Assembly (NCBI GenBank): GCA_902517815.1
Contig: CABYED010000005.1
Span: forward strand, 1-64,000
Source: an uncultured SAR116 cluster alpha proteobacterium
GTDB taxonomy: Bacteria; Pseudomonadota; Alphaproteobacteria; Puniceispirillales; Marisalimonadaceae
Direction of reading: 5' to 3'
Length of the DNA stretch: 64,000 bases
In this document: piece by piece, positions 2 to 56,376 of the stretch
Layout: every line of letters begins with the position of its first letter
Numbering within the stretch: position 1 is the first letter of the stretch
Position numbers and translations under genes: made by a program
Notes under the pieces: model-generated
What the model saw: the letters and a program-made list of their open reading frames with translations, nothing else
Told to the model about the DNA's origin: nothing
Databases searched by the model: none

Positions 2-214
2 GATAACACTACTAAAACTAATAAGATGGATATTGTCTTAGAAGAAGATAAGGATATAGAGTTATCAGCTATTTTAAGGGGTGATGTGAATGGATCATAT
101 AATGCAGGTCAACATGACAGGCCTGATCCATCACCTGCACCGACATCTAACCTAGCACCATTACCACTTAACAATGATGATGAGTTATTAACCATCAATC
201 TTGATATCGTCTAA
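2..214 (+). CDS. C-terminal end of a large surface/secreted-type protein (5' cut by window edge)
   Basis: The reading frame is open from the window's first bases through an in-frame ATG at 26 to TAA at 214, so this is probably the tail of a longer gene rather than a 62-residue protein. The visible tail is acidic, carries a GDVNGSY motif resembling the calcium-binding/dockerin-like loops at the ends of large bacterial surface proteins, then a Pro-rich linker and the end DELLTINLDIV. A diverged copy of the last ~20 codons recurs at 6998-7063, just upstream of the second tRNA fragment, so the gene end belongs to the repeated unit. Family not identified; surface role is inference. Confidence 0.5.
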   Translation, partial: DNTTKTNKMDIVLEEDKDIELSAILRGDVNGSYNAGQHDRPDPSPAPTSNLAPLPLNNDDELLTINLDIV

Positions 215-495
215 AGTTATAAAAGTAAAACAACAAATTTAATCGTAATAAAAAATCATTTAATGATTGAAGACAGAGTTATCTTCTGACTGTATTTTGG
301 TGTACGAAAAATGGTACGAAAATCGTCTAAACTCGCTTGATTGTGTTTACAATACATAATAACTATTAATTTTAAATTGAGGGAATACCTAGAATTACTT
401 GACTATGTTGATTATTCATAAGTGTCATCAAGTAACTCAAAAACCAGTGCCGCAAGGCTTCCCGGTTCGATACCGGGTATCCCTACCAAACCTCA
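130..495 (+). repeat. Island repeat copy 1 (gene tail + att-like region + tRNA-Leu fragment)
   Basis: This stretch is strongly similar to 6998-7340, and its right half also to about 11525-11710. It contains, in order, the last codons of the upstream gene, a conserved AT-rich spacer, two direct repeats GTACGAAAA (302-310 and 314-322), an inverted repeat TTACTTGA/TCAAGTAA (395-402 and 428-435) and the tRNA-Leu fragment (436-488). The non-coding 215-694 interval holds nothing else I can recognise. The layout resembles an integrase attachment region, with arm-type repeats beside a tRNA-derived core. That function is inferred; the repetition itself is seen directly. Confidence 0.8.
436..488 (+). 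pseudogene. tRNA-Leu(CAA) 3' fragment, copy 1
   Basis: From the anticodon loop CTCAAAA (anticodon CAA) the sequence reads as the 3' part of a class II tRNA: anticodon 3' stem ACCAG, variable arm GCC-GCAA-GGC, T-arm CCCGG-TTCGATA-CCGGG with a perfect stem, acceptor 3' strand TATCCCT, discriminator A and CCA. The D-arm and 5' acceptor strand (expected AGGGATA) are absent; unrelated sequence lies upstream. This is the usual product of integration at a tRNA 3' end. It is the best preserved of the three copies. Confidence 0.85.
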
Positions 496-694
496 CAAAT
501 AAAGGTTGATAAAAATTTCAGAGAGTTTGTGGTGTAATTAGACACTTTCTCAAGTATTATATGGTGCTCGTACATCATTGGGTTTGTTCCATGTGAGGAT
601 AACTTCTGGTGTTAGTGATAGATACTATATTACAATTTGTTGATTATCCGAATTTTAGTGTTTCCTCCATTTTTTGATTATATAATCATTTTAT

Positions 695-2026
695 TTAAAA
701 ATATGGATTAGTGATTTTTCCACGTGCAGTTTCGTATGCGTGTCCAATTCTTAATACTAAGCCATCATTGAATTGTCTTCCTAGGATCTGTAAACCGGTT
801 GGCATCCCACTTGAGGCGAGTTTCATTGGAACACTCAATCCTGTCATACTTAAAAAGTTTGCCACTCTCGTATGCTGACTCATTATAAATGAACTTTCAT
901 CAACTTCTGAAATTGGAGGAGCTGTTATTGGTGTTGTTGGGAGTACAATTGCATCGAGAAGATCCATAGCAATTTCCATTTCTATATGATCCAAATCTCT
1001 CATTCTCATTGTTGATTTAAACTCATGTGCGGTTATATCTTTTCCTCGTTTAAGTCGCGCCCTGTTAGGACTAGCAAGTTCTGAGTTGATATCTTCAACA
1101 ATCGCTTGGTATGTCGCGTAGCCCTCAACAGCTGAAATAATCATGTTACATGTTTCATAATAATCTAGGCTTTTTGGTAACGAGAATGGAACAAGTGACG
1201 CACCTAAATCTCTTAAAACATCAATAGCGTCATTGAAGCAATCTAACACCTCAGTTGAAAGGTGGGGCATTTCGTCAACATTGAGAACACCCAAACGCAT
1301 ACCAGAAATTCCTTTTTTAAGGTCTCTCAATACATTCTGGTGCCTATAACCATAAGTGGTTTTATCTTTAATGTCTGGACCTTGCATCACCTGAAACATC
1401 TGCGCGGCCATCTCTACTGACTGTGTCATTGGACCGATGGTATCGAGTGTTTCTGATAGAGGAGTAACTCCAGTTCGGCTTACTGAACCAATTGAGGTTT
1501 TTAGACCAACACAACCACAAAAAGAGGCTGGGATTCTAATGGATCCACCAGTATCAGTTCCAAGTCCAGCAGGAACAATTCCTGCTCCAACCAACACGCC
1601 TGTACCACTTGATGATCCCCCAGGGGCGTAAGGCATCTCTGTATTCCAAGGATTGCTGGGAGTGCCAAGTGTATAATTTGTACCCCAACCTCCAATCGCA
1701 AATTCCACGGTTTGTGTTTTTACCACAGGTATTGCACCTGCAGCTTTAAGATTTTTGATAACTGATGCATCAATTGTCGCAGGTGGGTTCTGCAATCGTG
1801 TTTTTGATCCTGAAACAGTTGGATAATTTTGCAAGTCGATTATGTCTTTTACTGCAATAGGTAAACCATCTAGAAATGTCTTGTTTTTCTCAAAAATTTG
1901 TTCTTCATCAAACTGCTTTGCATGATGAAGTGCCTCATTATCTATACGCAGTGCTACCGCCTTTAATATTTGATCATTTTGATCTAGAGAAGCTAAAATA
2001 CGCTTAATTTTCTGCTGATATTTCAT
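695..2026 (-). CDS. Amidase-signature family hydrolase
   Basis: This 443-residue protein is of the amidase signature family, which hydrolyses C-N bonds of amides through a Ser-cisSer-Lys triad. The catalytic lysine is probably K60 (IAVKD), the cis-serine lies in the GGSSSG stretch at 136-141 and the nucleophile is S162 in GTDTGGSIRIP. Length suits stand-alone amidases. It has no signal peptide, so it should act in the cytoplasm. It lies downstream of the binding-protein gene on the same strand, across a hairpin, suggesting that it cleaves an amide brought in by the adjacent ABC importer. The substrate cannot be read from sequence; a GatA role is unlikely because gatB and gatC are not beside it. 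Confidence 0.85.
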   Translation of the reverse strand: MKYQQKIKRILASLDQNDQILKAVALRIDNEALHHAKQFDEEQIFEKNKTFLDGLPIAVKDIIDLQNYPTVSGSKTRLQNPPATIDASVIKNLKAAGAIPVVKTQTVEFAIGGWGTNYTLGTPSNPWNTEMPYAPGGSSSGTGVLVGAGIVPAGLGTDTGGSIRIPASFCGCVGLKTSIGSVSRTGVTPLSETLDTIGPMTQSVEMAAQMFQVMQGPDIKDKTTYGYRHQNVLRDLKKGISGMRLGVLNVDEMPHLSTEVLDCFNDAIDVLRDLGASLVPFSLPKSLDYYETCNMIISAVEGYATYQAIVEDINSELASPNRARLKRGKDITAHEFKSTMRMRDLDHIEMEIAMDLLDAIVLPTTPITAPPISEVDESSFIMSQHTRVANFLSMTGLSVPMKLASSGMPTGLQILGRQFNDGLVLRIGHAYETARGKITNPYF

Positions 2027-2105
2027 TTTTAATGCTCATAGCTCAAAATTATTTGGTTAAACGATAAAAGATGAGGATTTTTATGAAGGAACCCTAAGAT
2101 TTACT

Positions 2106-2138
2106 CATCTGCTTGCCTTCGTGATTAGCAAGCAGATG
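2106..2138 (-). terminator. 11-bp intergenic hairpin after the binding-protein gene
   Basis: CATCTGCTTGC (2106-2116) pairs perfectly with GCAAGCAGATG (2128-2138) around an 11-nt loop. It sits directly after the stop of the minus-strand binding-protein gene and before the amidase. On the minus strand no T-run follows, so it is more likely a transcript-stabilising or attenuating hairpin than a full terminator. A hairpin in the same relative place occurs in cassette B. Confidence 0.6.
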
Positions 2139-2149
2139 ACAATTTTTTA

Positions 2150-3367
2150 TTAGCGACTAGGTGCCGGGTAAATTGGTTTCATGGTAGCAATAGCATTTGG
2201 ATAAACAACTTCAGGTCCATTCTTACTATTTTGCATAATCACAAATTCCATACTTACCTGCTTTCCGGTTGGCTCAATTTTGTAGGGTCCCGTCATTACT
2301 GTAAGCTTTTCATTCAAATCCAAAGCAGCTTGCTTCATTTTTGCTGGATCTATGCTGTCTGCTTTTATAATAATTTCTTCGAGAACTGCGCCTGCTGAGT
2401 ATGCCAAAGCCGTTTGAAAGTCTGGTTGGTACGCCACATTTGGAAATAGCTTGTTGTAACTAGCCATTACTTGTTCCCTGCTAAGGCCAGCGTTAACTTT
2501 CCAGTTTATTTTTTCATGTAAAAGTGTTTGACCCATGATATAATGAGCATCCTTGCCAATTTCTAAAAATTGAGGTTGAGCAGCATACACCATGTATGTT
2601 GCAGGAAAATTAGCACCTTGCTCGCGTAATTGACGCGCCATAATCATCTGGTCCCCTTCATAGCCTGTCGGGTAAAATGCATCAGCTCCTGTTGCTAGTG
2701 CTTTTTGGATGATTAATGAAAAGTCTTTAGTACCTTTTGCGAATTTTTCCTCCATGGTTACCTTCATGCCTAATTTTTTAGCATAAGCAATTGCCCCTTT
2801 GGTAACGCCGGCAGGAAAGGGTTCATCCAAATACGCAAATGCAATAGACTTAACGCCCACTGCCTTTAAAGCTCGAATACTTGGATGGCTCATTCGTGAT
2901 GCCGCAATTTGTGATCCTGATACTACGTACTTGTACCCTTGTTCATAAATTGCATCGGATGATGCTGACCATATCATTAAAAACTTATCAAATTGTTCAG
3001 TTGTATTGGCTGCTGCACCTGTCAATGTCGAGCCAAAAGGCCCAAATAAAATATCAACGCCCTTTTCTTTAATAAGAGTTTCATAGACCCTTGGAACCAT
3101 AGCTTTGTCACTTCGGTCATCCAATGATACGAGTTCTATCTTTCTTTTTTGGCCATTAATAGAAATTCCCCCTCGGCTATTTACATCATTAATCCAAATC
3201 TTCAGTCCCCGTTCACCAGATTGTGCAGCTAAGGCAAAACGGCCTTGAGAGGAAACTGTCATACCAATTTTAATTGGGTCTGCTGCTCCAGCTACTTCGG
3301 TAAAAGCCATGGCAAAAGCTATGGAGGACAGAGCTAAAGAGCTCAAAAAACGTTTTAAAAAAGTCAT
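2150..3367 (-). CDS. ABC importer substrate-binding protein, branched-chain amino acid/amide type
   Basis: This is a periplasmic binding protein of the type I (LivJ/UrtA/AmiC-like) family. The open frame extends to 3439, but the best start is the ATG at 3367, six bases after an AGGAG ribosome site, giving 405 residues that begin MTFLKRF with a typical Sec signal ending near VAGAADP. The mature protein opens with IKIGMTVSSQGRFALAAQSG, a family hallmark. It is divergent from the livM-like gene, sharing a ~146-bp promoter region, and is the ligand-recognition part of that importer. The amidase downstream suggests an amide or related nitrogen compound; branched-chain amino acids remain possible. 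Confidence 0.9.
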   Translation of the reverse strand: MTFLKRFLSSLALSSIAFAMAFTEVAGAADPIKIGMTVSSQGRFALAAQSGERGLKIWINDVNSRGGISINGQKRKIELVSLDDRSDKAMVPRVYETLIKEKGVDILFGPFGSTLTGAAANTTEQFDKFLMIWSASSDAIYEQGYKYVVSGSQIAASRMSHPSIRALKAVGVKSIAFAYLDEPFPAGVTKGAIAYAKKLGMKVTMEEKFAKGTKDFSLIIQKALATGADAFYPTGYEGDQMIMARQLREQGANFPATYMVYAAQPQFLEIGKDAHYIMGQTLLHEKINWKVNAGLSREQVMASYNKLFPNVAYQPDFQTALAYSAGAVLEEIIIKADSIDPAKMKQAALDLNEKLTVMTGPYKIEPTGKQVSMEFVIMQNSKNGPEVVYPNAIATMKPIYPAPSR

Positions 3368-3513
3368 ATCCATCTCCTTATATTTTCTATTTTTTGTACC
3401 TAAAGGCTTTGCTATAATCTTTCCGCATAGCTGTGGCACTTGACTCTACGGTGCCATTGGTTAATGTAAAAATCAATATAATATTATAAACTGACATATC
3501 TAATGGAGAATAG

Positions 3514-4497
3514 GTGGCTAAGTCAGGCACAATAAAACCCGACGATTTTAGTGAAGAAATATCTGCCCAGCGGCTTAAAAGTAGCTTATGGTACACAATC
3601 ATTACAGTACTTATTTTAAGTTGTTTTTTGGTACCCCTTCAAGATGGAAATCTTTCCTTTATGTTTTCACTAATGATGTGGGTTACCCTCGCCACGGGCA
3701 TTAATTTTATAGCAGGATTCACAGGTTATATGCCTTTCGGTTACGTTGCTTTCTATGGAATTGGGACTTATGTTACTGCTATCCTGGTAAAGGTACTTGG
3801 TGTCTCGGAATATTTAGCTGTACCAGCAGCTGGCCTTTCTGGAATTTTACTAGCGCTTTTGTTTGCTCCTACGCTTAGATTAAATGGGATTTTCTTTGCT
3901 ATTGTAAGTCTCTCACTTGCAGTTGTGTGTCAACGACTGATGTCGTTGTTGCCAGAAGAGATCACAGGCGGAAGTCATGGACTGAACTTAGGGGTCGCTA
4001 CCGATAGGACACATGGATACTACGCAATGTTAATCATAATGTTTGTTGCTCTAGTATCAGCATCTTGGCTTGGACAATCTCGTTTAGGCAAAGCGTTGAA
4101 AGCAATTCGTGATGATCCTGATGCGGCTGATGCTATGGGCATTCATGTATCAAGAGTTCGTTTATATGCGTGGATTATGTCAGCTTTCTTTGCTGCACTT
4201 GCTGGTGGTGCGCAGGCGTGGTTTACTGGTGCTCTTGACCCAATAACCGCATTCGATGTTTTGATAACAGCAAAAACAGTTATTTATGCTATGGCGGGGG
4301 GGCTTGGAACGATCATCGGACCTGTCGTTGGGACAGTCACTTTAGTTTGGATTGATGAAATTGTGTGGCAGCAGTTTCCTGTTTTGAACAATTTTTTACT
4401 CGGCCTCATCATCACTCTTCTTATTTTATTCATGCCTAGAGGTGTGGTTGGAAGTCTCATGCAACACTTCCCTCACCTCAGAAAATATATTATGTGA
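3514..4497 (+). CDS. livM: ABC importer permease, LivM-like
   Basis: A 327-residue inner-membrane protein with many hydrophobic segments and, near 192-212, the cytoplasmic loop LGKALKAIRDDPDAADAMGI that contacts the ATPase in the LivM/UrtC family. The GTG start at 3514 follows a GGAG site. It opens a four-gene transport operon and pairs with the LivH-like permease, whose start lies beside its stop. Together they form the membrane channel for the periplasmic binding protein encoded divergently. The charged N-terminal ~25 residues before the first membrane segment are slightly long but not unusual. Confidence 0.9.
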   Translation: MAKSGTIKPDDFSEEISAQRLKSSLWYTIITVLILSCFLVPLQDGNLSFMFSLMMWVTLATGINFIAGFTGYMPFGYVAFYGIGTYVTAILVKVLGVSEYLAVPAAGLSGILLALLFAPTLRLNGIFFAIVSLSLAVVCQRLMSLLPEEITGGSHGLNLGVATDRTHGYYAMLIIMFVALVSASWLGQSRLGKALKAIRDDPDAADAMGIHVSRVRLYAWIMSAFFAALAGGAQAWFTGALDPITAFDVLITAKTVIYAMAGGLGTIIGPVVGTVTLVWIDEIVWQQFPVLNNFLLGLIITLLILFMPRGVVGSLMQHFPHLRKYIM

Positions 4498-4505
4498 GAA
4501 TATTT

Positions 4506-5426
4506 ATGAATACTATTCTTTTACTCAATGGGCTTGTTGGTGGTGTAATTTTTGGTGCGATATATGCGCTCATTGGATGCAGTTTGAATGTTTTGTGTGG
4601 TGTCCTTAGAGTAGTCAATTTTGCACATGGGGAATTCATTATTGCTGGATCATTTCTCTCATATGTATTGCTTACATTATTTGGCCTCCATCCTATTTTG
4701 AGCCTTCCAATAGTTACCATTGCATTTTTCTTAATTGGCTTTGGCCTTTACTACCTATTAATTCCCCGACTCGCTAAATCTGATGAGCCTGAAACATCAA
4801 GTTTTTTGCTTATGTTTGGAGTTTCTTTGATGATGATTGCAGCTATGATGTGGATTTTCGAGGCTGATATTCGAGCAGTGGAATTTAGTTTTGATCCTAT
4901 AAATGTCTCATTGTTAGTGATACAGGATGCGTATGGAGAGGGGAGAGACGGTCGAGTAATTGTGCCGACAGCACGCTTGGTAGCATTGGGGATAAATGCA
5001 CTTCTTATAATTGTTTTGACATATTTTTTATACAGGACATTGACGGGAAAAGCTATAAGAGCAGCAATTATGAACCGTGAAGCTATACAGATTGTTGGGA
5101 TTAATATTCACAGCTTATCAGCCTCAGCATTTGGATTGGCTGCTGCACTCGCTGGCATAACAGGTGTCGTACTGGCTTTTGTAGTACCATCAATTGATCC
5201 CAATGGTGGGCAAGATATAAGTCTTATTGGTTTTATTATAATTGTTCTTGGAGGCTTGGGTCATCCTGTCGGGGCATTAATTGCAGGGATTCTATTTGGT
5301 TTGGTTGAACAAATTGCTACAGTTTTTCTCCCCCAAGCAGCAGCTCAAATGCTTGGGTTTATTATACTGATCACAGTAATTTTTGTTCGTCCTCAGGGTT
5401 TAATGGGAAGGATGACACTTCGATGA
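4506..5426 (+). CDS. livH: ABC importer permease, LivH-like
   Basis: This second permease of the LivH/UrtB family has about 306 residues from the ATG at 4506, which follows a GAGAA site; a GTG at 4494 overlapping the livM stop is the alternative. The N-terminus NGLVGGVIFGAIYALIG and the early segment VVNFAHGEFIIAGSF are hallmarks of the family, as is the late VLGGLGHPVGALIAGILFG. It should form the channel with the LivM-like subunit. Its last codons overlap the ATG of the following ATPase gene (ATGA), indicating translational coupling. Confidence 0.9.
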   Translation: MNTILLLNGLVGGVIFGAIYALIGCSLNVLCGVLRVVNFAHGEFIIAGSFLSYVLLTLFGLHPILSLPIVTIAFFLIGFGLYYLLIPRLAKSDEPETSSFLLMFGVSLMMIAAMMWIFEADIRAVEFSFDPINVSLLVIQDAYGEGRDGRVIVPTARLVALGINALLIIVLTYFLYRTLTGKAIRAAIMNREAIQIVGINIHSLSASAFGLAAALAGITGVVLAFVVPSIDPNGGQDISLIGFIIIVLGGLGHPVGALIAGILFGLVEQIATVFLPQAAAQMLGFIILITVIFVRPQGLMGRMTLR

Positions 5427-6145
5427 TACCGAAGATTGTGTTACAACTTAAAGGTTTAAATAAATCGTTTGGAGGTCTGCTCGCCGTAAAAAATGTTGAT
5501 ATGTTGGTGAATGAAAGTTCCATATCTGGATTAATAGGTATTAATGGGGCAGGCAAAACAACACTTATGAATTGTATTAGCGGAATTTATCGAGCTGACT
5601 CAGGTTCTCTAGATATTATGGGGGTTTCATGCTTGAATTGGTCACCGCATGATATTGCTAGATTAGGAGTTGGGCGGACATTCCAAATCCCTCGAATTTT
5701 TAAGCGTATTAATCTTATTGATAATGTCATGGTACCAGCACTTAATGACAATACTGATAATAAAACTCTCTATGAACGGGCCACTGAGTGCCTGGACAAG
5801 GTAAAACTATATGATCTGAGGCATAATAACGCTGAAGAGCTCTCTGGAGGGCAGCAAAAACTATTGGAATTGGCCCGTATTATGATGTTCAATCCTAGGA
5901 TTATTCTTCTTGACGAACCATTCGCTGGGGTTAATCCAACTTTGTGCCGTTTAATGATTGAGCGCATAAAAGAACTGAAAGAACAGGGTAAAAGTTTCTT
6001 ACTCGTTAGTCATGATCTTACATCAATTTATCAATTATCAGACCATATATATGTTCTTAATCAGGGTCAGGTAATCAGTGAGGGTAACGTGGACTATGTC
6101 AGAAATGACCCTGAAGTAATTGAAGCTTATCTAGGAAATGCATAG
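5423..6145 (+). CDS. livG: ABC importer ATPase, LivG-like
   Basis: A 240-residue cytoplasmic ATPase. Walker A is GINGAGKTT (39-47), the signature LSGGQ is at 140-144, Walker B IILLDEP at 160-166 and the H-loop histidine about 197. The GRTFQIPRIF stretch after the Q-loop region is typical of LivG/UrtD. It overlaps livH by four bases and is followed by the second ATPase after 20 bases, the standard order for this importer class, in which LivG and LivF form a heterodimer. Confidence 0.92.
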   Translation: MIPKIVLQLKGLNKSFGGLLAVKNVDMLVNESSISGLIGINGAGKTTLMNCISGIYRADSGSLDIMGVSCLNWSPHDIARLGVGRTFQIPRIFKRINLIDNVMVPALNDNTDNKTLYERATECLDKVKLYDLRHNNAEELSGGQQKLLELARIMMFNPRIILLDEPFAGVNPTLCRLMIERIKELKEQGKSFLLVSHDLTSIYQLSDHIYVLNQGQVISEGNVDYVRNDPEVIEAYLGNA

Positions 6146-6165
6146 AGCAATTTGGATTTGGTGAA

Positions 6166-6912
6166 ATGGACGAACTGAACGAACTTATACGAATGAACAA
6201 TGTCCATGCTGCATATCATGGCGATATATATATTCTAAATGGCGTATCGTTAAGCATCAAACGAAACAAAATAACTGGAATTATTGGCCCAAATGGAGCT
6301 GGGAAATCAACTGTTTTAAAAACACTTTATGGATTCCTAAAACCCACCCAAGGTGATATTCTATTTCAAGGGGAAAGTATTGTGGGAGCACAACCTTGGA
6401 ATATGGTAACAAGAGGTGCAGCGTATGTTCCCCAAAATAGATCTTTGTTTAACGATCTTTCTGTAGACGATAACTTGCGACTTGGATGTTGGCATTTTAG
6501 GAGAGATGACCTACGTGTAAAGCAAGCACTTGAAAAAACCTATGATATGTTCCCAATTCTTGCTGAGAAAAGATCTGATCTTGCTGGTAGCATGTCAGGC
6601 GGTCAACAGAGATTCCTTGAAATTGGACGAGCTTTGGTTCTATCACCTAAGCTCATATTGTTAGACGAGCCTACTGCAATGATTGCTCCAAAGGTCTCGC
6701 AGGAATTGTATCAATTTATAAGGAGTTTGCCTGAAATGGACGTAACAGTAGTCCTTGTAGATCAGAATGTGCGTCAATGCGTTGAGGTGTCTGATTACAC
6801 ATACGTACTTGAGTTAGGTAAGAACACAATAGAAGGCAGTAGGGAACAATTTGGAGATGATAATTCTATGCGGGCTATGATTAAAGACTGGCTGGATTAT
6901 CAAATAGATTAG
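6166..6912 (+). CDS. livF: ABC importer ATPase, LivF-like
   Basis: A 248-residue ATPase, partner of the LivG-like subunit. Walker A GPNGAGKST is at 41-49, the signature MSGGQQ at 143-148 and Walker B LILLDEP at 163-169. The H-loop position reads DQN, as commonly seen in LivF, where Gln replaces His. The usual LivF stretch after Walker B (SLGLAP) is TAMIAP here, a modest divergence. It is the last gene of the operon; after its stop there are ~85 bases of unremarkable sequence and then repeat copy 2. Confidence 0.9.
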   Translation: MDELNELIRMNNVHAAYHGDIYILNGVSLSIKRNKITGIIGPNGAGKSTVLKTLYGFLKPTQGDILFQGESIVGAQPWNMVTRGAAYVPQNRSLFNDLSVDDNLRLGCWHFRRDDLRVKQALEKTYDMFPILAEKRSDLAGSMSGGQQRFLEIGRALVLSPKLILLDEPTAMIAPKVSQELYQFIRSLPEMDVTVVLVDQNVRQCVEVSDYTYVLELGKNTIEGSREQFGDDNSMRAMIKDWLDYQID

Positions 6913-6997
6913 TCCTAACCATTCACGCTTCGGCCTTTACATTAGACTGCTCTCCGAACATAACACTAGATTTTCAAAATCAGTTTTTGGCTACCGT

Positions 6998-7063
6998 TCT
7001 CCAGCACCATTGCAACTTAATAATAATGATGAGTTACTAACAATCAATCCTGATATTGTGTAA
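6998..7063 (+). pseudogene. Remnant of the C-terminus of the surface-protein gene seen at 2-214
   Basis: In frame up to TAA at 7061-7063 the translation ends SPAPLQLNNNDELLTINPDIV. This matches the end of the protein at 2-214 (SPAP, a six-residue gap, then LPLNNDDELLTINLDIV). No start or upstream homologous sequence is present, so only the tail of the gene was carried along with the repeat. It ties the repeated unit to that gene end. Confidence 0.7.
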
Positions 7064-7277
7064 AGTTATAAAAGTAAAACAACAAAATAATAATAAATCA
7101 ATTAATGATCGAAGTCAGAGTGATCTTCTGACTGTATTTTGGTGTACGAAAAATGGTACGAAAATCAACTAAACTGGCTTGACTGTGTTTACAATACAGA
7201 ATAACTATTAATCATAGATTAAGGGAATACCTAGAATTACTTGACTATGTTGACTATACATAAGTGTCATCAAGTAA

Positions 7278-7330
7278 CTCAAAAACCAGCGCCGCAAGGC
7301 TTCCCGGTTCGATTCCGAATATCCCTACCA
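7278..7330 (+). pseudogene. tRNA-Leu(CAA) 3' fragment, copy 2
   Basis: It has the same order of parts as copy 1: CTCAAAA, ACCAG, the variable arm GCC-GCAA-GGC, T-arm, TATCCCT, A, CCA. The T-stem 3' strand is CCGAA instead of CCGGG, so the two outer pairs with CCCGG are lost and the fragment is decaying. The 5' half of the tRNA is absent. It forms the boundary between cassettes A and B. Confidence 0.82.
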
Positions 7331-7405
7331 AACTTCATAAATACATGTATGTAGTTGTTTTAGAAGATTATTCGTAGTTTTGAATTCAACCAACATTATT
7401 AAAAT

Positions 7406-8779
7406 TCAGCTTTTTGAAAACGCTAACTCTTCTGATCGCGCTCGGCGCCATAGCTCAGCGGCTGCAGTTTCTGCAGCTTCAAGAACAGCTGATTTGTCCA
7501 CTCGTAGCGGCTCTCCACCAGAAACAACAACCTCGCCCTCCACAATGACTGTATCTACGTCTCGACCCTGTCCTGTGTGTACAAGTGTTCCCAACACGTT
7601 TGTAAGCGGTCTCAAATGTGGGCGCCTAAAGTCAAACATTACTAAATCAGCGCGTTTGCCAACTGTTAAAGAACCAACCTCGTCTTCCAGACCAAGCGCC
7701 CGCGCACCTCCAATTGTAGCAGCCTCAAATACATTGGCAGGCTGCCAATCGTTGGTAATCTTACCATCTTGTAAACGACCCGAAGCTAAAGCCCATCTCA
7801 TCAATTCCACCATATCAGCATGCATGTTGTCGGTTGAAAGTGCCAAATTCATACCCGCGCGACGTAGAGCACTGGTCGGCGCCACCTGACCGTGTGTTTG
7901 ATTGCCCTTAGCTATATGAGCCAGATGAGCGCCTGCGCGTCCAAGTCGCTCAATATCTGTTTTCGAGACGTGTATACAATGCGCACCAATTAAACGATCA
8001 TCTAGCAATCCGACATCCTCCAATAATTCAGGTGGACTCATCTTGTCACGTTCTCGAATGAAATCAACTTCAACTTGACTTTGTGAAACATGAGTGTTGA
8101 TCCGCAACCCTTTGTCATCGCGCATATTGCGTACTTGGCGCAATAGATCTGGCGAACAAGTGTCTGGCGCGTGAGGTGCTAGGACCACCCCAGTGAGTAG
8201 ACTAATTGGATCGTGATTTTCTTCAATTAGATCCGAGGCTTCCCTGAGAGTCTGCTCTCCTATTTTTGTGTTATAGGTCCACTCACCGAGATGTACGCGT
8301 GTGAAATCAACATCGTGGATTCTTCCACAGCCCCATGCTCTGATCCCTGTTTCAGCCATGGCTGGAAGTGCAATATTTTGGTGTGTGAAGGTATCGTTGA
8401 TTATCGTTGATCCGAAGAGGAGTGCTTCTAAACCGCCCAGCTGAGCCATAGCATATGCCTCTTCTGGGTTTGGATCATGTCCATGAGGCACACCAATGGT
8501 ATAAGCCGGCGCAAACCCCATGTCTTCCGCCACTCCGCGAACCATACTAAGGATAGCGTGGGTGTGGACGTTAACGAACCCAGGTGTAATGACAAACCCC
8601 TTCGCATCAATTACTTTTGTTGCCGGGTGAATCCTGGCCGGCTTTTTGTCTTGAATTGACTCTATTCGGCCGTTATCGATAATTACCCAACCTTCTTGGA
8701 TGTAAGGTCTATTGGGATCTGAGGTAAGCAGAGTGCCTCCTGCTACGATCATATCCGGTATTGCAAGAGCCTCATTCAT
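7406..8779 (-). CDS. Metal-dependent amidohydrolase (MTA/SAH deaminase - chlorohydrolase type)
   Basis: This 457-residue enzyme of the amidohydrolase superfamily most resembles the deaminase/chlorohydrolase group (methylthioadenosine or S-adenosylhomocysteine deaminase, TrzA, AtzA). Likely metal ligands are H72 and H74 (NVHTH), H230 (NTHVSQ) and D317 (LSTDN), with further active-site histidines at 267 and 270 (GAHCIH). Such enzymes remove an amino or similar group from ring nitrogen compounds in the cytoplasm. Its start overlaps the end of the ATPase gene by 8 bases, so it is co-translated with the importer and probably acts on the imported compound. The substrate is unknown. Confidence 0.85.
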
Positions 8780-9518
8780 GGGTCAAATGCCTAAGAAACC
8801 GCTGTGCACCAGGCGATTTTGGTTCTCTGAACAGAATTTCTGGTGGACCCTCCTCAGCAATCCTACCATCCTCCATATAAATTACGCGGTCTGCAACTTC
8901 ACGCGCAAAATTCATTTCATGGGTAACTACTACCATAGTCATACCTCCGTTTGCTAATTCCTTCATCACATCTAGCACCTCTTGAACCAATTCAGGATCC
9001 AGAGCCGAAGTTGGTTCATCAAACAGCATAACTCTAGGCTTCATTGCTAGTGCTCGTGCTATTGCTACTCTTTGCTGTTGGCCACCGGATAGTTGTACTG
9101 GACGCTTCATTGCGTGATCAGACATATGAACCCGTTTGAGTTCAGCTGCAGCGAGAGCTCTTGCATCCGACTTAGACATCCCACGAACCTTTTCAGGCCC
9201 AATAGCTACATTATCGAGGGCAGAAAAATGAGGAAATAGATTGAACCTTTGGAAAACAAAGCCAAATTGACTGCGTTGGTCGGCGATTTGTTTTTCAGAA
9301 CCACTATTCATCACTGGGTTTCCATCTAACCGTACATTACCAGCGCTAGGCTCCTCCAATCTATTCAGGCAGCGTAGAAAGGTGGTCTTACCTGAACCAG
9401 AGGCTCCAATAATTACAACAGTCTCACCAGTTGCTACGTCCATCGATACACGACGTAACACAGAATTATCCCCAAAGCTTTTGCTAAGGTCTTGCACTTG
9501 GATTACTGGAGTTACCAT
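8772..9518 (-). CDS. Polar amino acid-type ABC importer ATPase
   Basis: A 248-residue ATPase of the GlnQ/HisP family. Walker [10 protein letters not shown] is at 38-46, signature LSGGQ at 143-147, Walker B VMLFDEP at 163-169, D-loop SALD at 171-174 and H-loop H200. [13 protein letters not shown] around 85-97 is the family's Q-loop. It overlaps the permease gene upstream by 7 bases and the amidohydrolase gene downstream by 8, forming a tightly coupled operon. It powers the permease encoded just before it. Confidence 0.93.
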
Positions 9519-10165
9519 GTTGGAAGCCTCCGCTCAAGTCGACCCGACAACCAGCTTAATACTTTAATAAGAACATAATAATACACCGCCAGCAGAGTAT
9601 AAATCTCAAATGGCACAAAGTGAACTGAGATTATCGCCTGACCTGCTCTTGTTAATTCATAAACTGATATTACTGAGAGCAAAGATGAATTTTTTACTAA
9701 GCTTATTAGCTCGTTTGTCAGTGGCGGAACCATTTGTCTATAAGCTTGTGGTAGTAAGATATATACGAGGATTTGCCTGTGTCGCATGCCTATGGCAGTG
9801 GCTGCTTCGGACTGGCCCCGCTCAATAGACCCCACGCCACCGCGCACAACTTCCGCTACGAATGCTGCAGAGTTCAAAGAAAGCGCAACTACACCGGCCC
9901 AAAATTCATCAAATCGTATACCAAGCGCAGGGAGTGCAAAAAAAACTAGAAAAATTTGAATCAGCAAAGGTGTACCGCGTATAAAATCAACATAACCTGC
10001 AACAATCAAACGAAGGGGTCTACTATGCGACAGTGAGCACAAACCCAAAACTACACCAAGCACCAAACCCAGGACAGATGCTAGTGCTGAGACTTGCAAC
10101 GTTACCACTACACCATGACCAAGGAGTGGGATGCTTTCTAATATAATGCCCCAATCAATAGTCAT
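9512..10165 (-). CDS. Polar amino acid-type ABC importer permease
   Basis: A 217-residue inner-membrane permease of the HisM/GlnP family, with about five membrane segments. The cytoplasmic coupling motif lies near [20 protein letters not shown], followed by [25 protein letters not shown], highly characteristic of the family. Only one permease is present, so it probably acts as a homodimer. The gene is separated from the upstream binding-protein gene by 63 bases containing a strong hairpin. Confidence 0.92.
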
Positions 10166-10180
10166 ATAACCACCTATTCA

Positions 10181-10213
10181 ACCTTGTCCCCTAACCTATT
10201 AAAGGGACAAGGT
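10181..10213 (-). terminator. 10-bp intergenic hairpin after the binding-protein gene
   Basis: ACCTTGTCCC (10181-10190) pairs perfectly with GGGACAAGGT (10204-10213) around a 13-nt loop. It lies between the minus-strand binding-protein gene and its permease gene. No T-run follows on the transcribed strand, so partial termination or protection of the upstream mRNA from 3' decay fits better than full termination. This would give more binding protein than membrane parts. Confidence 0.6.
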
Positions 10214-10228
10214 AAGTTAAATTAGCAA

Positions 10229-11083
10229 TCACGCAAATGACGGAATTGTGTCGGACAGTTCCATTTTGAACCCAAACCACTTTTCTTGCAACGCGTAAAT
10301 CTCTCCGCTATCTTTCAGCCTTGTGAGTTCAGCATCCATCCAATTGACAATTTCTGTATCTTCTTTACGCGCCGCTATCCCTGCCCAATTCAACTTTCCG
10401 ACTGGGCGTACCAATGCGTATGCACCTGGACGGTCTTTCATCACTTTTCCTAATGTTGGCAAAGTGTTAAGCACACCATCAACCGTTCCTTGACTGAGCG
10501 CAAGATAAGCAGAAGGATGATCATCATAAATTTTTACATCAGAAAAACCCTTTCCTTTGGCGGCTACGATTTCTTTTTCAAGAGCTGGCTTCATCATTTC
10601 ACCAGGTGATCCAAGTTTAACGCCAAGTACTTTGCCTGAAAGATCCTTCACTGACATGATTTTTGATGCATCATCTGCTCGAATAAGCATAGCTTGGCTT
10701 GCTTCAGCATACGGAATAGAAAAAGCGACCTTTTTTAAACGCTCTTTACGGTAACTCATAGACGACATAATCACATCGAACCTTCCAGCGTAGAGCGCTG
10801 GAATTACACCTGACCACTGCGTGTCAATAAATTCTGGCTTAACCCCTAATGAAGCACACATCAAATTTGCTAAGTCGACATCATAGCCCACTATCTTACC
10901 CGCGTCCCGAAAAGTAAAAGGGGGATAAGTTGCTTCACATCCTATTTGCAACACTCCCGCCGCTTTTACATCAGACAAAGTTTTACTTGCTGCGCGAGCT
11001 AAACTAGGTGCCAACATTGATACAGCCAAACCCGAGGCGGCAGTGACTAAAACTTGACGGCGTGAAAATTTAGTTGTTTTCAT
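10229..11083 (-). CDS. ABC importer substrate-binding protein, family 3 (amino acid type)
   Basis: This 284-residue periplasmic binding protein begins with a twin-arginine-like signal (KFSRRQVLVTAASG) and a cleavage region near LARAASK. The mature part has the family 3 hallmarks: CEATYPPFTFRDAGKIVGYDVDLA near 49-72 and later KLGSPGEMM and VDGVLNTLPT. It captures the substrate for the single-permease importer downstream. Family members bind amino acids, opines or related cations; the linked amidohydrolase hints at a nitrogen heterocycle or modified nucleoside, which is inference. The promoter presumably lies in 11084-11300. Confidence 0.9.
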   Translation of the reverse strand: MKTTKFSRRQVLVTAASGLAVSMLAPSLARAASKTLSDVKAAGVLQIGCEATYPPFTFRDAGKIVGYDVDLANLMCASLGVKPEFIDTQWSGVIPALYAGRFDVIMSSMSYRKERLKKVAFSIPYAEASQAMLIRADDASKIMSVKDLSGKVLGVKLGSPGEMMKPALEKEIVAAKGKGFSDVKIYDDHPSAYLALSQGTVDGVLNTLPTLGKVMKDRPGAYALVRPVGKLNWAGIAARKEDTEIVNWMDAELTRLKDSGEIYALQEKWFGFKMELSDTIPSFA

Positions 11084-11524
11084 ATTACATACTCCTATAT
11101 CTTTGCGTTAAGTTAAATACTTGCCGGAAAATATTGTTATGCATTATATAATACAATTTTTATCCTGCTTTTTTTCACTGAAAGCTCGGGGTGCTAAAAA
11201 ATTAAGCTAAATTAGTTAATCATTTTAATGAATGTTTAATAAAACAGCACAAATCGAATTTACTTATATATCGAAAATACAAACTCAATTACAGCATTTT
11301 ACTAGAGTCGCTTTACCCCTTGAATCGCGAAACTTATTGGATATTTGAAATTCTGTTAATGTTAAATCTAGGTGTGTCATTCGTATGTTGACACCTATTT
11401 ATCAACAAAATAACGTGACAGTTCAATGCGAATAGAGCAATTAAATAGAAAATACAAAGTAAATATTAATATCGCTAAAGCTATAATGATAAGTGCCGCC
11501 AACTTATTTTCCATAGCTGTTAAA

Positions 11525-11710
11525 TAAATGGTACTAAAATCAATTAAACTGGCTTGACTGTGTTGACAATACAGAATAACAATTAATTTGTAATTGGGGG
11601 AATGCTTAGAAATACTTTACTACTTTACATATACATTAGTGTCATCAAGTAACTCAAAAACCAGTGCCGAAAGGCTCCCCGGTTCACTTCCGGGTATCCC
11701 TAACACAATT
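11525..11710 (+). repeat. Island repeat copy 3 (shorter, most diverged)
   Basis: This aligns with the right half of copies 1 and 2, from the GGTAC-AAAATC element (here only one, altered to GGTACTAAAA) through TTGACTGTGTTGACAATACAGAATAAC-like sequence to the tRNA fragment. The left inverted-repeat arm is degraded to TACTTTAC while the right arm TCAAGTAA (11645-11652) is intact. It ends just before the first chromosome-like gene at 11740. In the 11084-11739 gap, the part before about 11525 shows no gene. Confidence 0.75.
11653..11705 (+). pseudogene. tRNA-Leu(CAA) 3' fragment, copy 3
   Basis: CTCAAAA, ACCAG, the variable arm GCC-GAAA-GGC, a perfect T-stem CCCGG/CCGGG and TATCCCT are all recognisable. 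The T-loop is TTCACTT, losing conserved bases, and the terminal CCA is ACA. The 5' half is missing. It marks the right end of the island. Decay at conserved positions says it is not a functional tRNA part. Confidence 0.78.
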
Positions 11711-11739: not shown

Positions 11740-12204
11740 ATGGAACTTAATGATGAGGTCAAAATACCAGCAAAATTAGAATACGTTTACAATTGTTTAA
11801 ACGATCTTGAAGTTTTACAAAAATGTATTCCAGGTTGCGAAGAATTGTTAGAAAATACAGATGGTTCTTTGTCTGCTAGGGTAGTTTTAAAAATTGGACC
11901 AATAAAAGCAAATTTTAAAGGGAAAATTGTGTTAGATTTATCAAATGGCCCTGAAAAGTACTCGCTAAATGGTGAAGGGGATGGTGGCATGGCAGGTTTT
12001 GCAAAAGGAGGTGCTGATGTTGAATTAATTGAAGATGGTAATGAGACAATTTTAAAATACGTTGCTAAGAGTTCGGTAACAGGTAAGATTGCTCAACTTG
12101 GAAGTCGCTTAATTTTAAACACAGCTAAAAAATTATCTAAAACTTTTTTTGAAAATTTCAGAGAACATATCCGCAATGAAAAAAATGAAAATGTTCAATC
12201 ATAA
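11740..12204 (+). CDS. CoxG-like SRPBCC protein, copy 1
   Basis: A 154-residue protein of the CoxG family (SRPBCC fold), often annotated as carbon monoxide dehydrogenase subunit G. The N-terminus MELNDEVKIPAKLEYVYNCL and the core CIPGCEELLENTDGSLSARV with the GGADVELIEDGNETILKY strand are typical. No CO dehydrogenase genes are in the window. CoxG-like proteins also occur with other molybdenum hydroxylases or alone, so the role here is unclear. A second, clearly related copy follows 224 bases later. It is the first gene after the island boundary. Confidence 0.8.
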   Translation: MELNDEVKIPAKLEYVYNCLNDLEVLQKCIPGCEELLENTDGSLSARVVLKIGPIKANFKGKIVLDLSNGPEKYSLNGEGDGGMAGFAKGGADVELIEDGNETILKYVAKSSVTGKIAQLGSRLILNTAKKLSKTFFENFREHIRNEKNENVQS

Positions 12205-12428: not shown

Positions 12429-12881
12429 ATGGAATTGAATGACGAAATAAGAATCCCTGCAAAATTAGATTTTGTTTATAAATCCTTAAATGACCTACAT
12501 ATATTGCAGACTTGTATTCCTGGGTGCGAAGAATTAATAGAAGGTCAAGATGGCACCTTGAGTGCTAAAGTCATTTTAAAAATTGGTCCTATAAAAGCTG
12601 GCTTTAAAGGTAAAATAAACTTAGATCTCTCAAAAGGTCCTTCAAGATACTCGCTAACTGGTCAAGGTGATGGAGGTGTGGCAGGCTCAGCTTCTGGCGG
12701 TGCTGATGTTGAGTTAATAGAAGATGGTAATGAAACAATTTTAAAATATGCCGCTACAAGTAATGTTAAAGGAAAAATTGCTCAATTAGGTAGTAGATTG
12801 GTTTTGAGCACTGCTAAAAAGCTTTCAAGAGCATTTTTTGAAAATTTTAAGAATTATGTTATAGAAGAGCAAAAAAATTAG
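12429..12881 (+). CDS. CoxG-like SRPBCC protein, copy 2
   Basis: A 150-residue paralogue of the preceding gene; long blocks such as CIPGCEEL, LKIGPIKA, GGADVELIEDGNETILKY and KGKIAQLGSRL-type sequence are shared. The tandem arrangement suggests local duplication followed by divergence. It lies 36 bases before the deacylase gene and upstream of the sox genes on the same strand. The 224-bp gap between the two copies is AT-rich with no recognisable gene. Confidence 0.8.
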   Translation: MELNDEIRIPAKLDFVYKSLNDLHILQTCIPGCEELIEGQDGTLSAKVILKIGPIKAGFKGKINLDLSKGPSRYSLTGQGDGGVAGSASGGADVELIEDGNETILKYAATSNVKGKIAQLGSRLVLSTAKKLSRAFFENFKNYVIEEQKN

Positions 12882-53109: not shown

Positions 53110-53874
53110 ATGTCTTTTTTAAAATATTTAATACCGGCTAGTTTTTTAGCCCTACTTCCAACACTTTCATTTGCAGGGTCACACGGTGGTAATCTAGACC
53201 CAAGTGATGCTGTTGGTATAAGTTTTTGGATAATATCTATTGCCATGGTTGCAGCAACTGTTTTCTTCTTAATGGAATCATTGAGGGTAAAAGGCAAGTG
53301 GAGAACATCTCTAGTTGTTGGTGCTCTTGTTACTCTAGTTGCAGCAGTTCACTATTTCTACATGAGAGATGTGTGGGTTTCCACAGGTGCATCTCCTACA
53401 GTATTTAGATATGTAGACTGGATTATTACAGTTCCACTACAAATGATTGAATTTTATTTAATCCTTGCAGCATGTACTGCAGTTGCTGGTGGAGTTTTCT
53501 GGAGATTATTTCTTGGATCTCTAGTTATGTTAATTGGTGGATACTTAGGTGAAGCTGGTTTTATAAATGCAACTATTGGTTTTGTAATTGGAATGGCTGG
53601 ATGGATATTCATTCTATATGAAATTTTTGCTGGTGAAGCTAGTAAAGTTAGTGCAGATAGCGCACCTGAATCCGTTCAATCAGCTTTTAATACAATGAAA
53701 TGGATTGTGACTATTGGTTGGGCCATTTACCCAATTGGTTATTTCATGGGCTATATGGCTGGTGGTGCTGACGCAAACAGCTTAAATTTTATCTATAACA
53801 TAGCTGATGTTATTAATAAAATTGCTTTCTGTTTAGCTATATGGGCCGCGGCAACCACTGAATCCGATGCATAA
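53110..53874 (+). CDS. Proteorhodopsin, blue-absorbing type, proton pump
   Basis: A 254-residue seven-helix retinal protein with a signal peptide (cleavage near SFAGSHG). In RYVDWIITVPLQMIEFYL the proton-pump triad is D103, T107 and E114 (D97, T101, E108 of green proteorhodopsin). The spectral-tuning position is Q111 (105 in the reference), which indicates blue absorption. The Schiff-base lysine is K237 (VINKIAF) and H81 is the conserved helix B histidine. It pumps protons outward in light. It is followed by a strong terminator and then the retinal synthesis genes. Confidence 0.97.
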   Translation: MSFLKYLIPASFLALLPTLSFAGSHGGNLDPSDAVGISFWIISIAMVAATVFFLMESLRVKGKWRTSLVVGALVTLVAAVHYFYMRDVWVSTGASPTVFRYVDWIITVPLQMIEFYLILAACTAVAGGVFWRLFLGSLVMLIGGYLGEAGFINATIGFVIGMAGWIFILYEIFAGEASKVSADSAPESVQSAFNTMKWIVTIGWAIYPIGYFMGYMAGGADANSLNFIYNIADVINKIAFCLAIWAAATTESDA

Positions 53875-53894
53875 GCATTAAAAAAAATAAAAAT

Positions 53895-53929
53895 AAAAGC
53901 CTGTAGGTAAATCTACAGGCTTTTTTTTT
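53895..53929 (+). terminator. Strong intrinsic terminator after proteorhodopsin
   Basis: A perfect 12-bp stem (AAAAGCCTGTAG with CTACAGGCTTTT) around a 6-base loop runs directly into a run of nine T. It begins 20 bases after the proteorhodopsin stop and ends three bases before the crtI ATG. It would end most transcripts and let a fraction read through into the carotenoid genes. Confidence 0.9.
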
Positions 53930-53932
53930 AAT

Positions 53933-55444: not shown

Positions 55445-55455
55445 AAGAGCTTAAT

Positions 55456-56376
55456 ATGGATTGCCATGTTGATGATGACAAAATAGTATTAAAAAAAAAT
55501 GGCAAAAGTTTTCATTGGGCTGGTAAGTTCTTAAATAAAGAATGCATAAATAGGGCGGCTGAGTTATATAGTTTTTGTAGAATTTTAGATGACATAGCAG
55601 ATAGTGGAGAATCTAATTCCCATAAGTATCTCATTAACATTAAATCTATTATTAAAAAGAATACAATTACAGAACTAGAAAATATTTATTCAATTAAGTA
55701 TCCTAAATTTTTAAAATCATCTTCTAAAAAAGTAGTAATAGATTTAATTGATGGACTTATTTTAGATCAAAAGGGTGTTTTATTTAAGCAGGAAGAGGAG
55801 TTAATTAGATATTCTTATCATGTAGCTGGAACTGTTGGAATAATGATGTGTGATGCTTTAAAGTGTGATAATGATCTTGCTAAATCATTTGCTATAGATC
55901 TCGGAATAGCTATGCAGCTTACAAATATTGCAAGAGATGTTTTAGAAGACGCTAAAATGGGAAGACGATATTTACCTGGGAGCTGGGTTCAGAATATTTC
56001 ACCTAAAGAAATAGTTTTAGCAGCTAAAACTAATGACTTAAAAAAAATTCATATGATTTCAAAAGGTATAAAAAAATTATTAATTCTAGCTGAACAATAT
56101 TATTTGAGTGGAGAAAAAGGTTTCCCTTTTTTGCCCTTTAATACAAGGGTTGCAATTTCTGTAGCATCAGGAGTTTACAGAGAAATTGGGGTGCAGTTAG
56201 AAAATGAAAATTTCAATTGGCAAAATGGAAGACAAATAACATCAATCTTCTCGAAAATAAAAATTACACTATTCAAGACTTTTAAAGAAATTTTTTATTT
56301 AAGAAATAAGAAAAAGCATAATTCTAAACTTCATATTTATTTAGAAAATTTAGTGAATGATAAAAAAGGAAATTAA
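55456..56376 (+). CDS. crtB: Phytoene synthase
   Basis: A 306-residue prenyl-condensing enzyme joining two GGPP molecules. The two Asp-rich motifs are FCRILDDIADSGE and NIARDVLEDAKMGRRYLP. The end overlaps the crtY start by 20 bases. The C-terminal ~40 residues are basic and slightly extended. A GGPP synthase (crtE) is not in the locus. Confidence 0.95.
   Translation: MDCHVDDDKIVLKKNGKSFHWAGKFLNKECINRAAELYSFCRILDDIADSGESNSHKYLINIKSIIKKNTITELENIYSIKYPKFLKSSSKKVVIDLIDGLILDQKGVLFKQEEELIRYSYHVAGTVGIMMCDALKCDNDLAKSFAIDLGIAMQLTNIARDVLEDAKMGRRYLPGSWVQNISPKEIVLAAKTNDLKKIHMISKGIKKLLILAEQYYLSGEKGFPFLPFNTRVAISVASGVYREIGVQLENENFNWQNGRQITSIFSKIKITLFKTFKEIFYLRNKKKHNSKLHIYLENLVNDKKGN

What the first reader, a model, noticed from the sequence alone, without database searches (positions are those of the whole stretch)
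436..11705. Three tRNA-Leu(CAA) 3' fragments in direct orientation bound two stacked cargo cassettes
Seen: 53-nt fragments at 436-488, 7278-7330 and 11653-11705 each run from the anticodon loop CTCAAAA to the acceptor end and lack the 5' half. They decay differently: copy 2 in the T-stem, copy 3 in the T-loop and CCA. Known: tyrosine integrases often use a tRNA 3' part as attB, leaving such fragments as att remnants, and tRNA-targeting cargo elements (tycheposons) occur in marine cyanobacteria. Inferred: serial integration at one tRNA-Leu left two nutrient cassettes side by side, with the functional tRNA to the left of the window. No integrase is present, so the cassettes may move in trans or be fossils.
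Basis: partly seen in the sequence, partly recalled or inferred. Interest (0 to 1): 0.85.

Follow-up and report, generated by a model that had tools for sequence, protein, structure and literature searches.

The report
Stacked nutrient cassettes at tRNA-Leu
In a common group of ocean bacteria, one tRNA gene works as a docking site where small packets of nutrient-uptake and other genes are inserted one in front of another, and most packets carry no integration enzyme of their own.

Summary
The window begins a contig of a SAR116-type alphaproteobacterium, not a cyanobacterium. The three 53-nt tRNA-Leu(CAA) pieces are cores of att sites, set in longer repeats with arm-type motifs at mostly fixed distances. 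The same genome holds the intact tRNA-Leu(CAA) on another contig, beside a tyrosine integrase gene. Relatives supply the missing arrangements: 12 clean empty sites, cassette B alone at the tRNA, and other cargo in other orders. Of 25 fully bounded elements in 19 genomes, 19 have no integrase trace and one has a full-length integrase. Pieces farther from the tRNA are more diverged in 9 of 10 adjacent comparisons (one tie). An integrase-less hydantoinase cassette is 98.1% identical between two genera whose IleS is 68% identical; the identical block runs from the first base of the tRNA core to just past the distal core. The array is therefore serial site-specific integration of cargo cassettes. 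Whether the integrase acts in trans, or in cis with later loss of its element, is unresolved. Window cassettes A and B lack left-arm motifs and are probably fixed now. The kind is known (additive islands, CIMEs, Dehalococcoides ssrA islands); this is an integrase-poor variant.

The parts
2..214 (+). C-terminal end of an ORF that runs off the contig, inside the element nearest the tRNA (presumably the integrase element of contig C18); dockerin-like by eye
   Evidence: similar C-termini elsewhere in the genome, one in an open frame of 2870 aa
246..435 (+). Right arm of the upstream element; arm-type motifs GTACGAA at 302-308 and 314-320
436..488 (+). att core copy 1: tRNA-Leu(CAA) 3' piece (1 edit of 53)
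489..694 (+). Left end of cassette A; about 70 nt resemble (by eye) the left ends of elements in G003, G006 and G025; no GTACGAA motif
695..2026 (-). Cassette A: amidase-family hydrolase
   Evidence: amidase models, below curated cut-offs; not found in the 39 other genus genomes at E<=1e-60
2150..3439 (-). Cassette A: branched-chain amino acid/urea-type ABC substrate-binding protein
   Evidence: below cut-offs
3514..4497 (+). Cassette A: LivM/UrtC-type permease
   Evidence: below cut-offs
4494..5426 (+). Cassette A: UrtB/LivH-type permease
   Evidence: below cut-offs
5423..6145 (+). Cassette A: LivG/UrtD-type ATPase
   Evidence: below cut-offs
6166..6912 (+). Cassette A: UrtE/LivF-type ATPase
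   Evidence: below cut-offs
7003..7277 (+). Right arm of cassette A, including the last codons of the ORF seen at 2-214; GTACGAA at 7144-7150 and 7156-7162
7278..7330 (+). att core copy 2 (3 edits of 53); collinearity with G038, where cassette B abuts the intact tRNA, starts exactly at 7278
7331..7405 (+). Left end of cassette B; 75% identical over 67 nt to the tRNA-side end of the integrase element; no GTACGAA motif
7406..8779 (-). Cassette B: amidohydrolase of the TRZ/ATZ, N-ethylammeline chlorohydrolase and deaminase group
   Evidence: below cut-offs; 10 of 58 family genomes at E<=1e-120, all 10 at this tRNA locus
8772..9518 (-). Cassette B: polar amino acid ABC ATPase (GlnQ-like)
   Evidence: below cut-offs
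9512..10165 (-). Cassette B: polar amino acid ABC permease (TIGR01726 above its cut-off)
10229..11083 (-). Cassette B: amino acid ABC substrate-binding protein
   Evidence: below cut-offs
11526..11652 (+). Decayed right arm of cassette B (no exact GTACGAA left)
11653..11705 (+). att core copy 3 (5 edits of 53): the displaced original 3' end of the chromosomal tRNA-Leu gene
11740..12204 (+). First chromosomal gene after the array (cluster c5; CoxG-like by recall); c5 follows the tRNA directly in the empty-site genomes G014, G018, G030 and G036

Best explanation
One tRNA-Leu(CAA) gene is a hotspot for a family of small integrative elements. A tyrosine integrase recombines an attP core, matching the tRNA 3' part from the anticodon loop to CCA, with the tRNA gene. 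Each insertion restores the intact tRNA with its own 3' piece and pushes the previous 3' end outwards, so elements stack with the newest nearest the tRNA. Most members are cargo cassettes without an integrase, and some keep both arm regions. In the window the inferred order is: cassette B first (amidohydrolase and amino acid transporter), then cassette A (amidase and branched-chain/urea-type transporter), then an integrase-bearing element whose start, with the intact tRNA, is on contig C18. Shown by sequence: the intact tRNA and neighbouring integrase, empty and alternative sites, boundaries at the core, arm motifs at mostly fixed positions, decay with distance, and recent cross-genus sharing of an integrase-less cassette. 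Inferred: that this integrase supplies the recombination (in trans, or in cis with a helper element later lost), that C18 and C5 are neighbours, and that the cargo serves organic-nitrogen scavenging.
For: Intact tRNA-Leu(CAA) followed after 133 nt by the 3' end of a 370-aa integrase gene (PF00589, E 3e-24), with an HTH_17 protein nearby. Empty sites with the same right flank. The window is collinear with G038 from 7278, the first core base, to 14643 at 95.1%; in G038 that base is the first core base of the intact tRNA. G056 (another genus) and G020 share one integrase-less cassette at 98.06% over 6889 bp, from the first core base to 2 nt past the distal core, with IleS 68.1% aa and third codon positions 97.5% against 54.1%. 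G003 and G020 share another at 98.8% over 3627 bp (G020's contig starts inside it) with different right neighbours. GTACGAA lies mostly at +86/+97 and -134/-122 of the core across elements with different cargo. Farther pieces are more diverged in 9 of 10 adjacent pairs, 1 tie, 0 reversed. Cassette B (two genes) is closer at third positions than IleS in 45 of 45 pairs of 10 genomes; its genes (two to four per pair) are closer than left-flank genes in 33 of 36 pairs of 9 genomes. Arrays also occur on contigs whose lengths equal those of records AG-321-K23, SCGC AAA015-N04 and AG-893-L10, names of the single-cell style (my recall of the naming), which speaks against binning artefacts.
Against: No excised circle, junction read or assay. 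Full-length copies of this integrase were found in only 2 of 58 family genomes, so most hosts have no visible helper, although many genomes are incomplete. The C18-C5 junction is not assembled. Cassette B has no other element beyond it in the 9 of 10 genomes where its far side was seen, which also fits an old resident. In G026, G039, G041 and G044 the arm motifs are partly or wholly missing. Similarity of cassette B does not follow IleS well, but a weak positive trend is not excluded (Spearman 0.17, permutation p 0.19). The excess of two-armed elements next to the tRNA (7 of 15 against 1 of 10) is suggestive only. Three of 36 pairs show cassette B no closer than the flank.
Confidence: 0.9

Rival explanations
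1. Cassettes move only in cis: a composite of integrase element plus cassette integrates as one unit, and the integrase element is later lost, leaving a CIME-like cassette.
For: Integrase remnants lie at the left ends of elements in G025 (74 aa and 42 aa), G034 (26 aa) and G055 (136 aa), and G006 has a truncated one. In G023 and G006, and by inference in G000, the integrase element is nearest the tRNA, in front of integrase-less cassettes. PMC5704250 describes this accretion route (passages).
Against: In G056 the cassette shared with G020 sits alone between the intact tRNA and the chromosome, and the identical block is a single cassette, core to core. Later loss of a composite partner could hide this.
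Confidence: 0.4
2. RecA homologous recombination between tRNA copies or arm repeats spreads the cassettes, without site-specific recombination.
For: Cores of 53 nt and arms of about 190-345 nt give some homology; G000 and G038 are also very similar in the right flank (96.8% third positions), which hints at flank exchange there.
Against: The displaced pieces found by BLAST start at tRNA position 33 or later and no 5' half of the tRNA is copied; the junction sequence before the core is element sequence in the inner copies. In the cross-genus pair G056/G006 the left-flank genes are only 62% identical, and for G056/G020 the identical block stops at the core.
Confidence: 0.06
3. The window's A and B are fossils: old insertions that can no longer move.
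For: Both lack GTACGAA right of their left core, and B also lacks it in its right arm. Cores 2 and 3 carry 3 and 5 edits. No further att piece was seen beyond B in 9 of 10 genomes that hold it; in G006 the fetched stretch ends inside B.
Against: B is closer between species than left-flank genes in 33 of 36 pairs (92% against 53% third positions for G000/G021), so it moved after those species split. The right arm of A keeps both motifs.
Confidence: 0.65
4. Assembly or binning artefact: repeats joined unrelated cassettes.
For: The genome is in 62 contigs and the window starts at a contig end inside a multi-copy gene end.
Against: Displaced pieces occur in 22 of the 41 genomes examined at this locus; G038 is collinear with the window from copy 2 through the right flank.
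Confidence: 0.03

Closest known systems
Dehalococcoides ssrA genomic islands (PMC3146451, passages read)
   Same: Tandem islands at one RNA gene, each bounded by a direct repeat of its 3' end; 15 of 31 without integration modules, suggested there to be cis-mobilizable elements spread by accretion; metabolic cargo.
   Different: Serine recombinase, tmRNA target, 20-bp repeat. Here a tyrosine integrase, a tRNA-Leu anticodon-loop core of 53 nt, recognisable arm motifs, and a near-identical integrase-less cassette shared between genera.
CIME / tandem accretion model (PMC5704250, passages)
   Same: Elements without integration genes that keep att sites and stack in front of one another at a tRNA gene.
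   Different: CIMEs are decayed elements that have lost integration and transfer genes. No conjugation gene turned up among the element proteins scanned here, but this was not searched systematically.
Additive flexible genomic islands with tRNA-targeted cassettes in Alteromonas (PMC4119200, passages) and Actinomarinales (PMC7771536, passages); tRNA-Lys repeats in Methylopumilus (PMC10872708, passages)
   Same: A tRNA as repeated insertion target for cargo cassettes, with tRNA direct repeats; Actinomarinales shows cassette exchange between genera (about 75% similarity).
   Different: Here the arms, a candidate integrase, the insertion order and a 98% cross-genus copy with boundaries at the core are resolved; I did not see these in the passages read.
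Tycheposons (original Cell 2023 paper not held; known here through PMC10872708 passages and recall)
   Same: tRNA-bordered cargo elements of marine bacteria with a tyrosine recombinase and nutrient genes.
   Different: 19 of 25 units here are 1.2-6.8 kb without any recombinase trace and they stack in series; homology of the integrases was not tested.
Islander tRNA islands (PMC4383910, passages)
   Same: Regenerated tRNA and displaced 3' fragment mark the ends; anticodon-centred attP sites are a listed class.
   Different: Islander resolves a tandem array only if each member has its own integrase, so arrays like this would be collapsed or missed; it lists 125 tandems of two or more and 4 of three or more, with 3919 islands in all.

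Membership tests
tRNA-targeted tyrosine-integrase genomic island | Intact tRNA at one end, displaced 3' fragment at the other, direct orientation | tested here: met
   in G000 itself the two ends are on different contigs
tRNA-targeted tyrosine-integrase genomic island | Tyrosine integrase gene inside the element | tested here: inconclusive
   Present beside the tRNA on C18, but absent from cassettes A and B and without trace in 19 of 25 bounded elements
CIME (cis-mobilizable element) | No integration genes but att sites on both sides | tested here: met
   19 of 25 bounded elements, A and B among them; whether the att sites still work is not known
CIME (cis-mobilizable element) | Derives from an ICE/IME and has lost transfer genes | not tested
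   Only integrase remnants were looked for
CIME (cis-mobilizable element) | Mobilised in cis by an adjacent element | not testable with these tools
   needs excision and transfer data
Additive flexible genomic island | Same tRNA locus with different numbers and kinds of cassettes in related genomes, absent in some | tested here: met
Tycheposon | tRNA-bordered element with a tyrosine recombinase, 4-200 kb (as summarised in PMC10872708) | tested here: inconclusive
   The integrase element fits in outline; cassettes A and B have no recombinase; 8 of 25 elements are under 4 kb
Tycheposon | Homology of recombinase and core genes to Prochlorococcus tycheposons | not tested
   no reference sequence used
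Integron cassette array | IntI integrase, attI and attC sites | tested here: inconclusive
   The repeats are tRNA 3' pieces with flanking arms and the integrase matches Phage_integrase with a SAM-like N-terminal domain, which does not look like an integron; IntI and attC models were not run

The most novel reading that the evidence does not exclude
SAR116 bacteria share a tRNA-docked, integron-like cassette economy. A scarce integrase, full-length in 2 of 58 family genomes here, moves a larger pool of integrase-free nutrient cassettes in trans between species and genera, and the tRNA pieces left behind record the order of arrival.
Probability: 0.4. Interest if true: 0.75.

Novelty: new variant of a known kind. 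Interest (0 to 1): 0.58.

Why it matters
SAR116 is an abundant surface-ocean group (abstract of PMC8547437, listing), and how its members gain nutrient genes seems little described: the 2021 SAR116 phylogenomics paper holds no occurrence of 'genomic island', 'flexible' or 'integrase' (term search). This locus gives a readable order of acquisition (nearest the tRNA is newest), element ends, arm motifs and a candidate integrase. The trans-versus-cis question for integrase-less cargo becomes directly testable. Island finders that require an integrase per island would miss most of these units.

Tried and rejected
Chance repeats: rejected (E 1e-21 or better, boundaries at the core, many genomes). 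Simple tandem duplication of the tRNA end: rejected, because the intervals hold different cargo and the sequence left of the core is element sequence. Purely vertical inheritance of cassette B: rejected by third-position comparison, although its outer position looked vertical at first. Phage vehicle: a 28-nt exact pattern across the element/core junction and the integrase gave nothing in viral contigs; this does not exclude phages. Cassette A elsewhere in the genus: only its amidase was searched, with none in the 39 relatives at E<=1e-60; its source is unknown. Bridging C18 to C5 through the ORF at the contig start failed: that C-terminus is multi-copy in this genome. Integrase beyond the family: 6 of 136 order genomes at E<=1e-60, five of them in the family plus G087 at 51%.

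Limits of the counts. Of 44 family relatives with a repeat match, 40 loci were fetched (G016, G042, G048 and G050 were not); many of the 66 matches are to the tRNA part alone. IleS was sought in 24 genomes; G023, G033 and G036 gave only weak hits to other synthetases and were dropped, and G002 is partial. G020 has no left flank and is absent. The edit counts give the truncated G006 piece 11 edits. The 10 adjacent pairs of the decay test come from 8 arrays and are not fully independent.
Full report
The window is C5:1-64000 of a 2.04-Mb genome in 62 contigs. Three named contigs that encode the integrase or a piece of it have the same lengths as G023:C4, G025:C2 and G034:C5 of the same genus: AG-321-K23 and AG-893-L10 are titled SAR116 cluster, SCGC AAA015-N04 is titled alpha proteobacterium. 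The names are of the single-cell style (recalled); the AG-893-L10 record is labelled MAG.

Observation. They are part of longer repeats that extend to the left. The intact tRNA-Leu(CAA) lies on contig C18 (L005:9051-9135). A 370-aa tyrosine integrase gene reads towards it and ends 133 nt after it (PF00589); small helix-turn-helix genes follow. C18 ends 7.4 kb beyond the tRNA with no displaced piece found. The window starts at a contig end inside the element before copy 1, so the simplest order is tRNA - integrase element - copy 1 - cassette A - copy 2 - cassette B - copy 3 - chromosome. The C18-C5 join is inferred.

Relatives. A search of 151 genomes, the own one included, with the 261-nt repeat matched 66, of which 45 lie in the same family; many matches are to the tRNA part alone. 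I fetched 40 relatives' loci. Displaced pieces are present in 22 of these 41 genomes. Where the left side of the tRNA is present it carries the gene clusters c0-c4 (31-34 members each). In 12 fetched genomes the tRNA is followed directly by genes also seen beyond the arrays of others: cluster c5 in G014, G018, G030, G036; c11 in G010, G013, G035; c15 in G046, G049, G051, G057; c32 in G007. In G014, G018 and G036 the flank reads like the flank after copy 3 of the window, so copy 3 is best read as the original tRNA 3' end. Six other fetched genomes with only the intact tRNA are not clean empty sites: G021 has cassette B with no distal piece found, G040 has the left end of an element, and G029, G037, G047 and G052 have other genes.

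Collapsed and alternative arrangements. Cassette B lies directly beside the intact tRNA in G002, G012, G022, G024, G038 and G021. It lies behind another cassette in G003, behind other cassettes in G020, and in G006 behind an element with a truncated integrase and a further cassette. The window is collinear with G038 from 7278, exactly the first core base, to 14643 at 95.1%. In 58 family genomes the cassette B amidohydrolase occurs in 10 at E<=1e-120, each time at this locus. The amidase of cassette A was found in none of the 39 genus relatives at E<=1e-60.

Anatomy. Elements share a right arm with GTACGAA mostly at -134 and -122 from the core start and, when intact, a left arm with GTACGAA mostly at +86 and +97 (some +109) from the core end. 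Spacing is similar although cargo differs, as expected for arm-type sites of this integrase class (established for phage integrases; here inference). Of 25 elements bounded on both sides in 19 genomes, one has a full-length integrase (G023), one a truncated one (G006), four have remnants (G025 twice, G034, G055), and 19 have no trace at E<=1e-4. The integrase element of G000 itself is split over two contigs and is not among the 25. At E<=1e-10, 7 of 58 family genomes match this integrase at all; full-length matches are G000, G023 (96%) and, at 52% identity, G056, whose copy sits at tRNA-Trp. Elements with at least one motif in both arms are 7 of 15 next to the tRNA and 1 of 10 farther out, suggestive only. 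In the window, cassette A keeps its right-arm motifs but has no left-arm motif, and cassette B has neither.

Order of arrival. If each insertion regenerates the tRNA and pushes the old 3' end away, farther pieces should be older. In 10 adjacent pairs of pieces (8 arrays) the farther one has more edits in 9, with one tie and no reversal; 30 of 34 intact tRNAs match the reference core exactly and 4 have one edit.

Horizontal movement. G056, in another genus, and G020 share a cassette (Bmp-type binding protein, 2OG-Fe(II) oxygenase, HyuA, HyuB) without an integrase. The match is 98.06% over 6889 bp, from the first base of the tRNA core to 2 nt past the distal core. IleS is 68.1% identical, and third positions are 97.5% in the cassette against 54.1% in IleS. 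G056's IleS lies on the same contig as its array, against contamination. A second cassette is 98.8% identical over 3627 bp in G003 and G020 (IleS 90.9%) with a different cassette on its right; G020's contig starts inside it. Two genes of cassette B are closer at third positions than IleS in 45 of 45 pairs, and its genes (two to four per pair) are closer than the left-flank genes in 33 of 36. These units moved after their hosts diverged.

Mechanism. Shown: target, boundaries, arms, order, sharing between species. Inferred: that the C18-type integrase does the work. Trans action and cis accretion followed by loss are both open. Homologous recombination alone is unlikely, because breakpoints sit at the core and no 5' half of the tRNA is copied.

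Cargo. Window cassettes carry hydrolases plus ABC importers. Names come from model hits nearly all below NCBI's cut-offs, so substrates are not established; organic nitrogen is my inference. Other elements carry a helicase-nuclease protein, a RecQ-type helicase, an McrB-like ATPase and an alginate-lyase-like protein, and some of these match defence-system models.

Novelty. Tandem RNA-gene islands with integrase-less members are published for Dehalococcoides, accretion of CIMEs is a standing model, and tRNA-targeted additive cassettes are described in Alteromonas and Actinomarinales. I saw no report for SAR116 in the listings of searches or in two papers on or with SAR116 searched by term; most subscription papers, including the tycheposon paper, could not be read. 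I therefore call it a new variant of a known kind.

Noticed in passing
L088:5481-10561 (G056:C27): A related element of about 5 kb at tRNA-Trp with a 52% identical integrase, a 61-nt match (84%) to the same right arm, and an HTH protein that by eye is very similar to L005:11308-11700 (DNA 74% over 1208 bp). The same gene kit may use integrases for different tRNAs.
   Followed up: partly
L126, L127, L128 (G049, G053, G043): The hyuAB operon of the G056/G020 cassette also occurs, about 93% identical, in genus-g2 genomes away from tRNA-Leu, with no att-arm match in the fetched stretches: a possible source of captured cargo.
   Followed up: partly
window 2-214; G000:C4, C17, C13: The contig starts in a C-terminus (dockerin-like by eye) that is multi-copy in this genome, one in an open frame of 2870 aa; its last codons also precede att copy 2 at 7003-7063.
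   Followed up: partly
L036, L037, L040 versus L005, L039 (left ends): Two types of left end follow the core (one seen in G000/G023, one in G003/G006/G025), possibly matching two integrase sublineages.
   Followed up: no
window 11740-12204 and 12429-12881: Tandem duplicate (74% DNA identity) of the c5 gene just outside the array, also in G038.
   Followed up: no
L037:2393-2430 (G006): Only tRNA positions 48-85 remain between two cassettes; probably a deletion that also took hyuAB and the right arm.
   Followed up: no
window 53110-58275: ORFs that read like a proteorhodopsin and carotenoid cluster; recognised by eye only, no tool run.
   Followed up: no
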